Assembly (NCBI RefSeq): GCF_003932715.1
Contig: NZ_CP020700.1
Coordinates: 3,432,501-3,496,500 of the forward strand
Direction of reading: 5' to 3'
DNA: 64,000 nt
From: Streptomyces tsukubensis
Lineage (GTDB): Bacteria; Actinomycetota; Actinomycetes; Streptomycetales; Streptomycetaceae
This document shows, piece by piece, positions 24,804 to 29,350 of the stretch. Position numbers and translations under genes: made by a program. The notes below the pieces were generated by a model. The model was given only the letters and a program-made list of their open reading frames with translations. It did no database searches and was not told the DNA's origin. Numbering within the stretch: position 1 is the stretch's first letter; every line of letters starts with the position of its first letter.

Positions 24804-25382
24804 GTGGCTGAAGACCTGTCCGCCGTAGCGCGCTTCCTGTACGAGTCGGGGACGCTCAAGCACGCCCGCCGTACCGGCTGGTGGATGGCCGGGGTGCGCG
24901 ACCCCGAGAGCGTGGCCGAACACTCGTGGCGGACATCGCTGATCGCCTCCGTGATCGCGAAACTGGAAGGGGCCGACCCGGCGCGGGCCGCGTTCCTCGC
25001 GGTCTGGCACGACTCGCAGGAGACGCGGACCGGGGACGTGAACCACCTGGGGAAGAAGTACGCGGACGGTGCCGACCCGCTTGCGGTGACGGCGGACCAG
25101 ACCGCCGGGATGCCCCAGACCCTCGCGGACACCGTGCGCGAGCTGGTGGCGGAGTACGAGGCCAACGAGTCACGCGAGGCGGTCTGCGCCAGGGACGCCG
25201 ACAAGCTGGAGTGCATGCTCCAGGGCATCGAGTACCAAGCGCAGGGCTACCGGGGCACTCAGCGGTGGATCGACAACAGCCGCAAACGATTGGTGACCGA
25301 GTCGGGACAGCGGCTGGCCGACGAGCTTCTGACACAGGACCCGCTCGACTGGCTCAACACAGCGATGCGCCGTCCGAACTGA
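24804..25382 (+). CDS. HD-domain phosphohydrolase (YfbR/HDDC2-like)
   Basis: A 192-residue protein with the HD metal site: His40 in VAEHSW, His69-Asp70 in AVWHDSQET and a late Asp (131 or 133) in ARDADKLEC. The layout matches 5'-deoxynucleotidases of the YfbR/HDDC2 group, which remove phosphate from deoxynucleoside monophosphates. The GTG start has AAAGGAG upstream. It follows the XRE gene closely. A nucleotide-depleting enzyme beside a large regulator would be compatible with a stress or defence function, but a housekeeping role is equally possible. Confidence 0.82.
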   Translation: MAEDLSAVARFLYESGTLKHARRTGWWMAGVRDPESVAEHSWRTSLIASVIAKLEGADPARAAFLAVWHDSQETRTGDVNHLGKKYADGADPLAVTADQTAGMPQTLADTVRELVAEYEANESREAVCARDADKLECMLQGIEYQAQGYRGTQRWIDNSRKRLVTESGQRLADELLTQDPLDWLNTAMRRPN

Positions 25383-25475
25383 CCTGGCGGCGCTCCCCCG
25401 GACCGGGAACGAGGAAGCCGTCGAGATCGCCGTTTTTTCGCCGTAGGCACGTCCTGACCGAGCTGGAGGCCCTGT

Positions 25476-26072
25476 ATGGACCCAAGTCGTGATCGAAGCC
25501 CTGTGACGGAGCCGGAGCGGGTGCCAGAATTCGTGGACGGGGCCGGCTTCCGCCGTCTCTTCGAAACCTTCAAGCACACCGCCTGGCGGCTGGAAACACG
25601 GCGCGGCTACGCGTCCGACCGTGAGGATCCCGACTTCCAGGCGTTCCTGGCCACCGGGTCCTCGCCCTGCGATCCCGACGAGCCCTGGTTCATCAACATC
25701 AAGGCCCAGACCGAGGCGGGCAAGACGGTCGGCCGGGTGCGCGTCGCGGACAGCCCGCCCACCACAGAGCAGCGGTTCCTCCTCGACTACGCCCGGCACA
25801 ACGCGGCCGTGGGCGAGGACATCCGCTACCTATGGCGTGCGGACGCCGACCGCGCAGAGCTGCCCGCCGAAGATTTTTGGCTCTTCGACTCGCGCTTGGT
25901 GGCGCTGCTGCACTTCGACGATGCCGACAACCTCGTCAACATCGAACTGATCACCGAACCGGCCAAGGTCGTCCGCTACTGCATGGTGCGTGACGCTGCG
26001 ATGCACAACGCATTCTCGTGGGACGAATTCGCCGCGCAGGTAGCCGGGGCGGACAGTGTGCGGAACGGGTGA
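25476..26072 (+). CDS. DUF6879 family protein
   Basis: A 198-residue protein. Recognisable text includes 'FRRLFETFKHTAWRLETRRGY', 'VGRVRVADSPPTTEQRFLLDY', 'GEDIRYL' and 'EDFWLFDSRLVALLHFD'. In streptomycetes this family normally sits directly upstream of an XRE regulator starting (V/M)SSDYQ; here that partner is reduced to a few codons (see 26070-26190). ATG 25476 has GGAGG 8 bases upstream. Biochemical role unknown; it lies in an accessory region together with the XRE and HD genes. Confidence 0.78.
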   Translation: MDPSRDRSPVTEPERVPEFVDGAGFRRLFETFKHTAWRLETRRGYASDREDPDFQAFLATGSSPCDPDEPWFINIKAQTEAGKTVGRVRVADSPPTTEQRFLLDYARHNAAVGEDIRYLWRADADRAELPAEDFWLFDSRLVALLHFDDADNLVNIELITEPAKVVRYCMVRDAAMHNAFSWDEFAAQVAGADSVRNG

Positions 26073-26190
26073 GCAGCGACTACCAGTAAGCCCGGGCTCC
26101 GGGCCCGCACGATCGTGGCCGACGAGATCCGCAAGCACGGCGCCTTCACCATCACCTGCCTCGGTGGGCTGCTGATCTGCCGCCGCTAGT
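26070..26190 (+). pseudogene. Relic of the XRE partner gene behind DUF6879
   Basis: GTGAGCAGCGACTACCAGTAA overlaps the DUF6879 stop and reads V-S-S-D-Y-Q-stop, the usual N-terminus of the DUF6879-linked XRE regulator, with TAA where intact genes carry CAA (from memory of the family). After it, another frame reads 'TIVADEIRKHGAFTITCLGG' and ends in LLICRR at TAG 26190, which looks like the tail of a different gene. The rest of any regulator is missing. A nonsense change followed by deletion would explain it. Confidence 0.4.
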
Positions 26191-26203
26191 CACCGCACGG
26201 GGG

Positions 26204-27322
26204 TCAGCCCACCACCCGCTCCTCCCGGTCCAGCCACACCCGCTCGCCGTCCTCCGAGACCGTGATGCCGAAGCGGGCGCGCTCCGGGGTGCCCCAGCCT
26301 TCCCACTGCCGGAAGGCTTCTTCGGCCGTCTCCCAGAGCCGCTCGGGGCCGTACTGCTCCACCAGATACTCCCGTTGGCCGGGTAGATAGTCGACGGACG
26401 CCCAGGACGCGCGGTCGTCCGCGAGCAGCCACAGGGTCGCCTCACCGCTGCCGTCCTCCGCCCGGACCCAGTGGTACCAGGCGCGGGGCAGCGCCAGGCC
26501 GACGGCGAACAGCGCGTCCGGGGTCCGCAGGAGGCGGCGGGGGTCGAGGGTCGTCGCCGTTGCCTCGGCTTCGGTGGTGTGGTGGAGGAAGTCCCCGAGC
26601 CGGCCGCGGTACGGGCGGTTGTTGCGGGTCCGCATGAACGACGGGTGGCCGTGGAACCTGCCCCGGCCCACTCCGTCCGCGACATCCAGCACGGCGAAGC
26701 TCGCGTGGAAGAAACTGCCGCCCCAGGGGGCGACGATCCGGCCGTGCGGGGTCTGTTCGATCCACGCGTACGGGATGCGGGGCACGGTGTACGTGGCGAT
26801 CAGGCGGTCGTACGGAGCATCCTCCGGCCGGCCCCGGTCCGCGTCGCCGCACACGATCCGGGGGCTCGTTCCGGCCGCCGCGGCGTTCCGCGCGGCTTGT
26901 TCCGCCAGCAGCGGGTCGATATCGACGGAGACGACGTTCCCGCCCCCGAGCCGATGCGCCAGCCAGGCCGCGTTGTAGCCGGTGCCCGCCCCGGCCTCCA
27001 GCACCCGGTGGCCCTCTTCGGCCCGCAGCAGCGACAGCATCTCCAGCATCACCGACGGCATCGAGCTGGACGAGGTGGGGAGCCGGTAGGCGCCCTCGGG
27101 GGCGGCGCGGCCGTCGTCGAGCTGGGTGGTGAGCGCGAGGTCCCCGTAGACGCACTCCAGCCAGCGCTCCGGCTCCCGGTCGCGGGAGACCGTCCGGCCC
27201 CCGGTCTCGAAACTGTCCGGCAGGAACAGCTCCCGCCGGACAGCAGCGACGGTCTCCTCCCAGCCCGGGGGAATCGCCCCCTTCCGGGTCAGGATCTCGA
27301 CCAGGCCTTCCGGTGTGCCCAC
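26204..27322 (-). CDS. PIMT-like (isoaspartyl) O-methyltransferase, long form
   Basis: SAM-dependent methyltransferase resembling protein-L-isoaspartate O-methyltransferases. The SAM loop is VLEAGAGTGYN (108-117), preceded by the PIMT signature TSSSSMPSVM (83-92); 'VVSVDIDPLLAEQA' and 'YDRLIATYTVPRIP' follow. At 372 residues it is far longer than repair PIMTs (about 210-230), with about 35 extra N-terminal residues and a C-terminal extension of some 150. That long form is typical of PIMTs in RiPP pathways (graspetide, lanthipeptide and imiditide types). GTG 27322 lies one base after the stop of a 38-residue peptide gene, so the two are translationally coupled. Substrate is inferred, not shown. 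Confidence 0.82.
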   Translation of the reverse strand: MGTPEGLVEILTRKGAIPPGWEETVAAVRRELFLPDSFETGGRTVSRDREPERWLECVYGDLALTTQLDDGRAAPEGAYRLPTSSSSMPSVMLEMLSLLRAEEGHRVLEAGAGTGYNAAWLAHRLGGGNVVSVDIDPLLAEQAARNAAAAGTSPRIVCGDADRGRPEDAPYDRLIATYTVPRIPYAWIEQTPHGRIVAPWGGSFFHASFAVLDVADGVGRGRFHGHPSFMRTRNNRPYRGRLGDFLHHTTEAEATATTLDPRRLLRTPDALFAVGLALPRAWYHWVRAEDGSGEATLWLLADDRASWASVDYLPGQREYLVEQYGPERLWETAEEAFRQWEGWGTPERARFGITVSEDGERVWLDREERVVG

Positions 27323-27323
27323 C

Positions 27324-27440
27324 TCAGTCCTCGTCGGGATCCGCCGGAGGGATCGGCCGGTCCCACTGCCCGTCGGCCTCCCTCGGCGGCTGCTGCTGAT
27401 CGCCCTCGGCGCCGCCCTTGCCGTCCCCGTGCTTCCCCAT
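27324..27440 (-). CDS. 38-residue charged peptide, possible RiPP precursor
   Basis: A short gene with a strong ribosome-binding region (GGAAGGAAGGGGCGGAGG) directly before its ATG. The peptide is 38 residues: basic and glycine-rich at the start (MGKHGDGKGG), Gln/Pro-rich in the middle, ending acidic in ADPDED. It contains two Asp-Gly pairs (Asp6-Gly7 and Asp23-Gly24), the sequence most prone to aspartimide formation, and one Trp (26). Stop and methyltransferase start are one base apart. As a PIMT partner it fits an imiditide-like precursor; it could also be a small acidic regulator. Confidence 0.55.
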   Translation of the reverse strand: MGKHGDGKGGAEGDQQQPPREADGQWDRPIPPADPDED

Positions 27441-27626
27441 GGCCTCCGCCCCTTCCTTCCGGTACGCATGCGGTCCGTATCCGCAGTGTGGCGGTCCGGG
27501 GACAGGCCTGTGAGGGCGCTTTCCGGCCCCCGCCGACCCGGTCGGTGCACGGCGCCGATGGTGCGCCCGGGGCGCGCGTTCGTCAGCGGTGACGGGCTCG
27601 GGCGCACGGCGGCGGGCGGCCCGGGC

Positions 27627-28058
27627 TCACGCCCGGCCCAGCACCATCCACTTCCCCGGCTCCTCCAGCGGTGCGAAGCCCGCCCTCGCATAGACCTCGT
27701 GCGCGTCCGCCGTGGCCAGCATGATCCGGTACACGCCCAGCGCGGCGACCTCGTCGCGGACCGCCGCCACCAACCCGTTGCCGAGACCACGTCCGCGCAG
27801 CTCCGGAGCGACGTACACATCGCACAGCCACGCGAACGTGGCCCGGTCCGTCACCACCCGGGCATAGCCGACCTGGGAGCCGGTCGCCGTCTCGTACACC
27901 CCGAAGTTCAGCGAGCCCTCGATGGCCGCCTCCTGCAGCTCCCGCGGGCGGCCCACGGCCCAGTACGCGTCCGTGGACAGCCACCGGTGGATCAGCGCAC
28001 GGTCGAGGCGGTCGGGGGAGGACGAGATCTCGTAGCCCTGCGGGAGCGAAGGTTTCAT
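27627..28058 (-). CDS. GNAT-family N-acetyltransferase
   Basis: A 143-residue acetyltransferase. The acetyl-CoA site reads VYVAPELRGRGLGNGL (motif A, R/Q-x-x-G-x-G/A as RGRGLG), preceded by 'GYARVVTDRATFAWL'. 'VYARAGFAPLEEPGKWM' closes the fold. Cytoplasmic; substrate unknown. It is transcribed away from nagK; its start is 353 bases from the nagK start. Confidence 0.88.
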   Translation of the reverse strand: MKPSLPQGYEISSSPDRLDRALIHRWLSTDAYWAVGRPRELQEAAIEGSLNFGVYETATGSQVGYARVVTDRATFAWLCDVYVAPELRGRGLGNGLVAAVRDEVAALGVYRIMLATADAHEVYARAGFAPLEEPGKWMVLGRA

Positions 28059-28411
28059 GCGCGCATCGAACCAGCCGGGGGCGGGGCCGGCCACCGAGTT
28101 CCCGTGGAGGAACAGACGGAGGAACGGACGGGGGGACAGACGGGGGGACAGACGGGGGTGCCGGACCGCGCGGGCGGGCCCCCAAGCACCCTCCCGCACC
28201 CGCCCCACGGGGAAAGCGCTTGCTGGAATCGCACCACCTGTGGCCGGAGGGCGACCCTCCCGTGGTGCTCTCCAGAAGGAACAGGGAGGCGAATCGCACC
28301 GGCGAAGCGGCATATATCCCGGCCAACCACCCGCCTCTAATTTGTATGACTCCGCAACAATTAGATGTAGTGGACTAGACCTATCCCCCGGTCGACCGCC
28401 AAACTGTCGGG
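28059..28411. other. Divergent regulatory region upstream of nagK (353 bp)
   Basis: No gene. Contains imperfect tandem repeats of GGGACAGACGGG (about 28113-28156), a LacI-type core AAGCGCTT at 28214-28221 within GAAAGCGCTTGC, an AT-richer segment (28335-28370) likely to hold the nagK promoter, and the DasR site listed separately. Confidence 0.55.
28369..28384 (+). promoter_or_regulatory. DasR-responsive element (dre) of nagKA
   Basis: AGTGGACTAGACCTAT matches the dre consensus A(G/C)TGGTCTAGACCA(G/C)T at 13 of 16 positions. It lies 27 bases before the nagK GTG, where DasR bound without glucosamine 6-phosphate would block transcription. DasR control of nagKA is known in Streptomyces. Confidence 0.82.
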
Positions 28412-29350
28412 GTGAGACACGTCATCGCCCTCGATGTGGGCGGCACCGGCATGAAAGCCGCCCTCGTCGGGGTGGACGGCACGCTCCTTTACGAGGACCG
28501 GCGGGCGACGGGGCGCGAGCGCGGAGCCGATGCCGTCGTGCAGTCGATCCTCGACTTCGCGGAGGAGCTCCTGGACTACGGGGTGGCCCAGTTCGGGCGG
28601 AGCGCCCTCGCCGCCGGGGTCGCGATCCCCGGGATCGTCGACTCCGCGCAGGGGATCGCGGTCTACGCCGCCAACCTGGGCTGGCGCGACGTCCCCATGC
28701 GCGATCTGCTCAGCCGCAGACTGCGCGGGATCCCCGTCGCCCTCGGGCACGACGTCCGCACCGGCGGATTCGCCGAGGGGCGGATCGGTGCCGGGCGCGG
28801 CATCGACCGGTTCCTGTTCGTCCCGCTCGGCACCGGCATCGCGGGCGCCATCGGGATCGCCGGCACCATCGAGGCCGGGGCGCACGGCTACGCGGGCGAG
28901 ATCGGGCACGTCGTGGTCCGCCCCGACGGACCCGACTGCGGCTGCGGTCAGCGCGGCTGTCTGGAGACCCTCGCCTCCGCCTCCGCGGTGACACGTGCCT
29001 GGGCGGAGGCCAGCGGCGATCCGTACGCCGACGCCGCCGACTGCGCCAAGGCCGTCGAGTCCGGCGACCCGAAGGCGACCGCCGTCTGGCAGGACGCGGT
29101 GGACGCCCTCGCCGCCGGTCTCGTCACGGCGCTCACCCTGCTGGACCCCCGCACGCTGATCATCGGTGGCGGGCTCGCCGAGGCGGGGGAAACGTTGTTC
29201 ACACCGCTGCGGGCGGCCGTCGAGGAGCGCGTCACGTTCCAGAAACTGCCCGCCATCGTCCCGGCCGCCCTCGGGGACACCGCAGCGTGCCTGGGTGCCG
29301 GGCTGCTCGCCTGGGATCTGATCGCCACCGACTCGGAGGTAACCGCCTAA
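28412..29350 (+). CDS. nagK: N-acetylglucosamine kinase (ROK family)
   Basis: Phosphorylates GlcNAc (or a similar hexose) at the 6-position for catabolism by NagA and NagB. The 312-residue ROK protein has the ATP motif ALDVGGTGMKAA at the start, the substrate motif 'YAGEIGHVVV' and the zinc-binding CGCGQRGCLE. A GTG start follows the dre site by 27 bases. Its TAA overlaps the nagA ATG (TAATG), so the two are translationally coupled. Role follows from family and context. Confidence 0.9.
   Translation: MRHVIALDVGGTGMKAALVGVDGTLLYEDRRATGRERGADAVVQSILDFAEELLDYGVAQFGRSALAAGVAIPGIVDSAQGIAVYAANLGWRDVPMRDLLSRRLRGIPVALGHDVRTGGFAEGRIGAGRGIDRFLFVPLGTGIAGAIGIAGTIEAGAHGYAGEIGHVVVRPDGPDCGCGQRGCLETLASASAVTRAWAEASGDPYADAADCAKAVESGDPKATAVWQDAVDALAAGLVTALTLLDPRTLIIGGGLAEAGETLFTPLRAAVEERVTFQKLPAIVPAALGDTAACLGAGLLAWDLIATDSEVTA

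What the first reader, a model, noticed from the sequence alone, without database searches (positions are those of the whole stretch)
26204..27440. Coupled 38-residue acidic peptide and long PIMT-like methyltransferase: candidate imiditide-type RiPP locus
The peptide gene has a strong ribosome-binding site and stops one base before the GTG of a 372-residue PIMT homologue. Repair PIMTs are about 210-230 residues; the long form with TSSSSMPS and a ~150-residue C-terminal extension is characteristic of RiPP-associated PIMTs. Imiditides are a known class in which a PIMT homologue alone converts a precursor Asp to aspartimide. The peptide has two Asp-Gly pairs (6-7, 23-24), the likeliest aspartimide sites. 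No lanthionine, ATP-grasp or radical-SAM gene is present, so the methyltransferase would be the only tailoring enzyme.
Basis: partly seen in the sequence, partly recalled or inferred. Interest (0 to 1): 0.82.

Follow-up and report, generated by a model that had tools for sequence, protein, structure and literature searches.

The report
Imiditide (pamtide) peptide–methyltransferase gene pair
A Streptomyces gene pair encodes a 38-residue peptide and the enzyme predicted to turn one of its aspartates into a reactive ring; it is a member of a recently described peptide family, with an unusual acidic tail that could test how the enzyme recognises its peptide.

Summary
On the minus strand a 38-codon gene (27440-27324) ends one base before a 372-codon PIMT-like methyltransferase gene (27322-26204). 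The peptide is real: 41 of 47 distinct close methyltransferases have an intact relative of it within 14 bases upstream, and its codons show protein-level selection. The enzyme model (pLDDT 93) matches both domains of the Thermotoga PIMT and carries WxxxGxP, the motif reported for imiditide, graspetide and lasso methyltransferases. No LanC, radical-SAM or graspetide ATP-grasp match lies in the window. So the pair fits a known class: imiditides (type I pamtides). The likely target is Asp23, not Asp6: DG at 23-24 recurs in the sister precursor family, DG at 6-7 does not. What departs from published description is the tail. Most published precursors end basic; the window peptide ends PADPDED, and 12 of 77 distinct family precursors have a net negative tail, on at least two branches of the enzyme tree. 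I found no significant compensating charge on the enzyme, with little power. New member of a known kind; the acidic tail is its interesting feature. No chemistry was tested.

The parts
27324..27440 (-). Precursor peptide gene, 38 aa; predicted modified residue Asp23 in EADGQW; acidic tail DRPIPPADPDED
26204..27322 (-). PIMT-like peptide aspartyl O-methyltransferase (PAMT), 372 aa, GTG start; PIMT domain about 1-237, C-terminal domain to about 369, WEGWGTP at 340-346
27449..27456 (-). Candidate ribosome-binding site GGAAGGGG, 16-9 bases before the peptide ATG (a GGAGG at 27443-27447 is only 2 bases from the ATG)
   Evidence: Read from the sequence
27329..27332 (-). GAGG inside the end of the peptide gene, 10-7 bases before the GTG: likely ribosome-binding site of the methyltransferase, consistent with translational coupling
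   Evidence: Read from the sequence; inference

Best explanation
A two-gene imiditide (type I pamtide) locus. The 38-residue peptide is the substrate encoded beside the enzyme. The methyltransferase uses S-adenosylmethionine to methylate the side-chain carboxylate of one Asp, most likely Asp23. The backbone nitrogen of Gly24 then attacks the ester, methanol leaves and an aspartimide forms (-18 Da), which slowly opens to a mixture of isoaspartate and aspartate. Shown here: the gene pair, its conservation, the enzyme's predicted fold and motifs, absence of the three other RiPP enzyme types searched for. Inferred from characterised relatives: the chemistry, the site and the product. The role of the product is unknown, as it is for the whole class.
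Against: No chemistry tested. Best NCBIfam match is the graspetide-associated TIGR04188, below its cut-off (290 of 380 bits), and the tree does not place families A+B nearer to the SpaM-type enzymes than to the graspetide-context ones. Orphan enzymes exist: L021, L044 and L088 have no intact precursor upstream, nor has L122, whose enzyme runs to 363 codons; L028 and L079 have a precursor frame that looks broken near its start. Asp6 and Asp14 are 67 of 67 in family A, though the motif used to collect peptides required Asp6 in all and Asp14 in the locus set. The window's tail lacks the basic residues found in most published precursors.
Confidence: 0.86

Rival explanations
1. The enzyme is a graspetide tailoring methyltransferase that lost its ATP-grasp partner or works in trans on a graspetide made elsewhere; the small peptide is incidental.
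For: TIGR04188 is the top NCBIfam match (2.6e-86). The genome has one TIGR04187 ATP-grasp, at 240 kb, with no PIMT-like match below E 0.9 in the 11 kb taken around it. The tree does not resolve families A+B from graspetide-context enzymes at depth.
Against: TIGR04188 score is below cut-off. The window enzyme sits in a clade of 17 (SH-aLRT 99), each with a family A or B precursor beside it, and the two graspetide-context rows, assigned by eye from an ATP-grasp-like end upstream, lie outside it. The precursor is under selection.
Confidence: 0.05
2. An ordinary isoaspartate-repair methyltransferase preceded by a regulatory leader peptide.
For: PIMT fold, PF01135; a few relatives keep the enzyme without the peptide.
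Against: Extra C-terminal domain and WxxxGxP. Conservation lies in the peptide's amino acids with free synonymous change. The close form is sporadic: 22 of 392 genus genomes at E <= 1e-95, own genome included, unlike housekeeping repair.
Confidence: 0.03
3. Same system, but the modified residue is Asp6 or Asp14 rather than Asp23.
For: Asp6, Gly10, Gly13 and Asp14 are 67 of 67 in family A (with the selection caveat).
Against: Family B has no DG at 6-7 but keeps [S/G]DG at the place of 23-24. The C-type precursors shown also keep a DG in their C-terminal half.
Confidence: 0.12
4. The window pair is decaying: the acidic tail is drift after loss of function.
For: C-terminal residues are reported as needed in SpaA (last 5) and NmaA (last 10, though not last 5); several relatives have lost the precursor.
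Against: Both frames are intact; the core keeps pN 0.055-0.127 against pS 0.49-0.61 versus five near relatives. Acidic tails recur: 12 of 77 distinct precursors, on at least two branches of the enzyme tree.
Confidence: 0.08

Closest known systems
Type I pamtides / imiditides: SpaA-SpaM (S. sparsogenes) and NmaA-NmaM (Nonomuraea maritima)
   Same: Two genes, precursor then PIMT homologue with extra C-terminal domain; short Gly/Pro/Asp-rich precursor; conserved Asp near Gly or Pro; linear peptide without another modifying enzyme (as reported in PMC10787088 and PMC13001092, parts read).
   Different: Different precursor family (HGDGKGG..GD..QSPKESDGQW); acidic instead of basic C-terminal end; enzyme 37% identical to the one on S. 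sparsogenes contig L077, which I take to be the SpaM type but could not check against the published sequence.
Sister precursor family B (MGKKGGxHSGKPDTSxSDGHRDKPPGPTKPYEPPKK), this study's label
   Same: Enzymes about 46-55% identical, same gene order, DG[H/Q/R] then [R/W][D/N/T]KP.
   Different: No Asp-Gly at 6-7; basic or neutral end; a DUF6879-like gene lies near the pair in 7 of 13 loci compared (6 upstream, 1 downstream).
Graspimiditide methyltransferases (TIGR04188)
   Same: Best NCBIfam profile match, though below cut-off; reported to share the C-terminal domain and WxxxGxP.
   Different: They act on peptides already cross-linked by an ATP-grasp enzyme; no TIGR04187 match lies in the window.
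Thermotoga maritima PIMT (1dl5)
   Same: Two-domain fold matched over 3-369.
   Different: Not described as linked to a RiPP precursor in the passages read.

Membership tests
Imiditide / type I pamtide | Two-gene unit: short precursor next to a PIMT homologue, without primary enzymes of other RiPP classes | tested here: met
   no LANC_like, Radical_SAM or TIGR04187 match in the 64 kb. Lasso, YcaO and other RiPP enzymes were not searched for
Imiditide / type I pamtide | PIMT homologue over 300 aa with extra C-terminal domain | tested here: met
   372 aa; model pLDDT 93.3; 1dl5 aligned over 3-369
Imiditide / type I pamtide | WxxxGxP motif near the C-terminus (reported for imiditide, graspetide and lasso methyltransferases) | tested here: met
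   WEGWGTP 340-346; 43 of 47 close enzymes
Imiditide / type I pamtide | Short precursor (~45 aa) rich in Gly, Pro, Asp with a highly conserved Asp near Gly or Pro | tested here: met
   38 aa; Asp at 23 before Gly24 in 66 of 67 distinct family A cores (motif-selected)
Imiditide / type I pamtide | Basic C-terminal residues (stated for most precursors, not as a defining feature) | tested here: not met
   Window tail net -4; of 77 distinct family A tails 64 are positive, 12 negative, 1 zero
Imiditide / type I pamtide | Enzyme turns the conserved Asp into methyl ester and aspartimide on the linear peptide | not testable with these tools
   Needs co-expression and mass spectrometry
Cysimiditide / type II pamtide | Two CxxCxGxG motifs in the precursor | tested here: not met
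   No cysteine in the peptide
Graspimiditide | Graspetide ATP-grasp gene in the cluster | tested here: not met
   The only TIGR04187 match is at 240 kb, far from the window at 3.43-3.50 Mb
Lanthimiditide | Lanthionine synthesis genes and TxDGC core | tested here: not met
   No LANC_like match in the window; no Cys in the peptide

The most novel reading that the evidence does not exclude
The window belongs to a natural branch of imiditides in which the C-terminal tail has changed sign from basic to acidic, more than once, with the enzyme showing no detectable compensating change. Recognition in this family would then rest on the conserved N-terminal half (HGDGKGG..GD..Q) and not on tail electrostatics, and the products could not act as the positively charged, membrane-directed peptides proposed for the class.
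Probability: 0.42. Interest if true: 0.55.

Novelty: new member of a known kind. Interest (0 to 1): 0.42.

Why it matters
Imiditides have no known biological role, and how their methyltransferases pick one Asp in a linear peptide is an open point. Current models lean on charge: a mostly basic peptide end and an acidic enzyme loop. A family in which most precursors have basic tails and a minority, including this one, have acidic tails is a ready-made set of natural substrates for that model.

Tried and rejected
Compensation of tail charge by the enzyme: Spearman correlation of tail charge with net charge of the whole enzyme or of three parts of it over 35 family A pairs gave |rho| at most 0.15 and p of 0.37 or more; over 52 A and B pairs |rho| at most 0.13 and p of 0.35 or more. 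In that script the tail was cut wrongly in two rows (P0160, P0162) and the part boundaries were wrong in 14 rows without the exact string TSSS, so the part values are rough. Column by column, 3 columns of the alignment differ strongly between 4 acidic-tail and 29 basic-tail enzymes, two of them in the wrong direction. Sliding-window permutation: p 0.13, 0.058 and 0.54 for 10, 20 and 30 columns (L014 dropped because its enzyme sequence is aberrant, which left 28 basic-tail rows). The 20-column maximum lies at the extreme C-terminus, where P0052 has a basic extension. Four acidic pairs give little power, and permutation ignores kinship.

Q15 goes with negative tails: 8 of 12 against 4 of 64, Fisher p 1e-5, but kinship is not corrected for, so I do not lean on it.

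Joint loss of peptide and enzyme: I first read L122 and L131 as cases in which both are broken. Rechecked, the L122 enzyme runs to 363 codons, close to the 361-codon forms of several relatives, so it counts as an orphan enzyme and against tight coupling; only L131 (frameshift) remains.

Conserved third gene: none in family A by the ORF clustering used. Promoter: no sigma-70-like site. One terminator-like site lies inside the enzyme gene, not pursued. Rfam: nothing at gathering score in 25000-29000. The VIA listing covers mainly residues 1-237, so absence of other families there means nothing.

appears to have drawn the same 392 genus genomes as (all matching handles recur) and added nothing.

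Pairs built from protein records (10 of the 52 rows) rest on equal contig lengths or organism name, not on read gene order. The enzyme tree is FastTree, midpoint-rooted, with support values not printed.

Full report
What is there. On the minus strand a 38-codon ORF (27440-27324) is followed after one base by a 372-codon ORF with a GTG start (27322-26204). The peptide is MGKHGDGKGGAEGDQQQPPREADGQWDRPIPPADPDED. The second protein matches PF01135 (PCMT; 5.1e-22) and NCBIfam TIGR04188, the ATP-grasp-system methyltransferase, at 2.6e-86 but under its cut-off. Its closest named relatives are Streptomyces proteins: 94% in S. tsukubensis, 87% in S. qinzhouensis.

The peptide is a gene. Among the 106 loci held, 47 distinct methyltransferases scored over 250 tblastn bits. 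Of these, 41 have an intact precursor that ends between 14 bases before and 4 bases inside the enzyme start: 25 of family A (HGDGKGGxxGDxxQSPKESDGQW plus a tail, which includes the window) and 16 of family B (GKPDTSxSDGHRDKPPGPTKPYEPPKK type) (recounted by script). Of the other 6, two (L028, L079) show the family B motif in a frame that looks broken near its start, one (L042, Nocardiopsis) has a different short peptide, and three (L021, L044, L088) have none intact; L044 and L088 keep what looks like the end of a decayed one.

In the 15 further loci, 10 show family A and/or B precursors by motif (some share their core with loci already held). L134 and L135 repeat L125 and L124, L129 has the B-like variant of L041, and L122 and L131 have none. 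L122 keeps a 363-codon enzyme, so it is a further orphan; L131 is frameshifted. In 30 distinct core DNA sequences, mean pN is 0.128 and pS 0.471 over 435 pairs; the two shifted frames give ratios of 2.2 and 1.7. The sequences were gathered by a motif, so conservation at motif positions is overstated; the synonymous freedom is not.

Neighbours. The window holds none of the genome's LANC_like (6), Radical_SAM (25) or TIGR04187 (1) matches. Flanking genes are an HTH protein, an HD-domain protein, DUF6879, a GNAT acetyltransferase and a ROK protein. Across 16 family A loci with longer flanks, no further predicted gene family is shared by more than five. So the unit is two genes.

Mechanism. Lee et al. 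2023 (PMC10787088; I read the outline, parts 1-2, sections 2.3 and 2.5 and found passages) report for SpaA/SpaM that a PIMT homologue alone gives +14 and -18 Da at the conserved Asp of a linear peptide. By homology the window enzyme should methylate one Asp of its peptide, with spontaneous aspartimide formation and hydrolysis. Asp23 is the best candidate: DG at 23-24 is the pair kept across families A and B, and the C-type precursors shown (output partly cut) also keep a DG in their C-terminal half, while the DG at 6-7 is missing in B. In family A, position 23 is Asp in 66 of 67 distinct cores and Glu in one, P0170. Asp6 and Asp14 are also conserved in family A, so they are not excluded.

What is unusual. 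The papers state that most type I precursors have conserved basic C-terminal residues. They report that replacing the last 5 residues of SpaA abolished modification, that removing the last 10 residues of NmaA hurt it but removing the last 5 did not, and that replacing an acidic loop of NmaM hurt it. The window tail DRPIPPADPDED is net -4. Among 77 distinct family A precursors (61 protein records plus loci), 64 tails are net positive, 12 negative, one zero. Enzymes paired with negative tails sit on two separate branches of the enzyme tree: window and L013 on one, P0133 and P0180 on the other (the latter two are paired by equal contig length only, and support values were not printed). I looked for a matching change in the enzyme and found none that is significant, with only four acidic pairs to compare. 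Either the tail is not the recognition element in this family, or the compensation is subtle.

In print. I saw no mention of acidic-tailed imiditides in what I read. The searches were 'imiditide', aspartimide + methyltransferase + RiPP, 'pamtide' and 'Nonomuraea maritima' or aspartimide. Supplements were not available, and the founding JACS paper is not held, so the precursor families and tail types may already be listed there.

Verdict. It is a new member of a known kind. Its acidic tail is the one feature worth a specialist's time, because it makes the electrostatic recognition model testable with natural substrates. On checking I lowered two numbers: the main confidence from 0.87 to 0.86 because L122 proved an orphan enzyme, and the novel case from 0.45 to 0.42 because NmaA tolerates loss of its last five residues, which makes a changed tail less surprising.

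Noticed in passing
Own genome, loci L107, L109, L110, L112, L114, L116, L117 (G000:C1): The genome has 15 PIMT-like matches, the window's included. By neighbouring ORFs read by eye and LANC_like positions they include two more pamtide-like pairs (L107, L109), lanthipeptide contexts (L112, L114, L116), a radical-SAM neighbour (L117) and an FHA-like context (L110).
   Followed up: partly
L124/L135 (G714) and L125/L134 (G720): Tandem array: a family B precursor-enzyme pair followed directly by a family A pair, in two genomes.
   Followed up: no
L021, L044, L088, L122, L131: Relatives in which the precursor is missing or decayed; the enzyme frame is open in the first four (L122 stops at 363 codons) and frameshifted in L131.
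   Followed up: partly
P0170: A family A precursor with Glu in place of Asp23 (KEKEGQW), which should not form an aspartimide there.
   Followed up: no
L137 (G000:C1:235500-246500): A graspetide-type ATP-grasp (TIGR04187 over cut-off) with a precursor-like frame upstream (read by eye) but no PIMT-like match below E 0.9 in the 11 kb.
   Followed up: partly
window 25476-26072 (+): A DUF6879 gene lies downstream of the pair. Relatives of it lie near the pair in 7 of 13 family B loci compared, 6 upstream and 1 downstream.
   Followed up: partly
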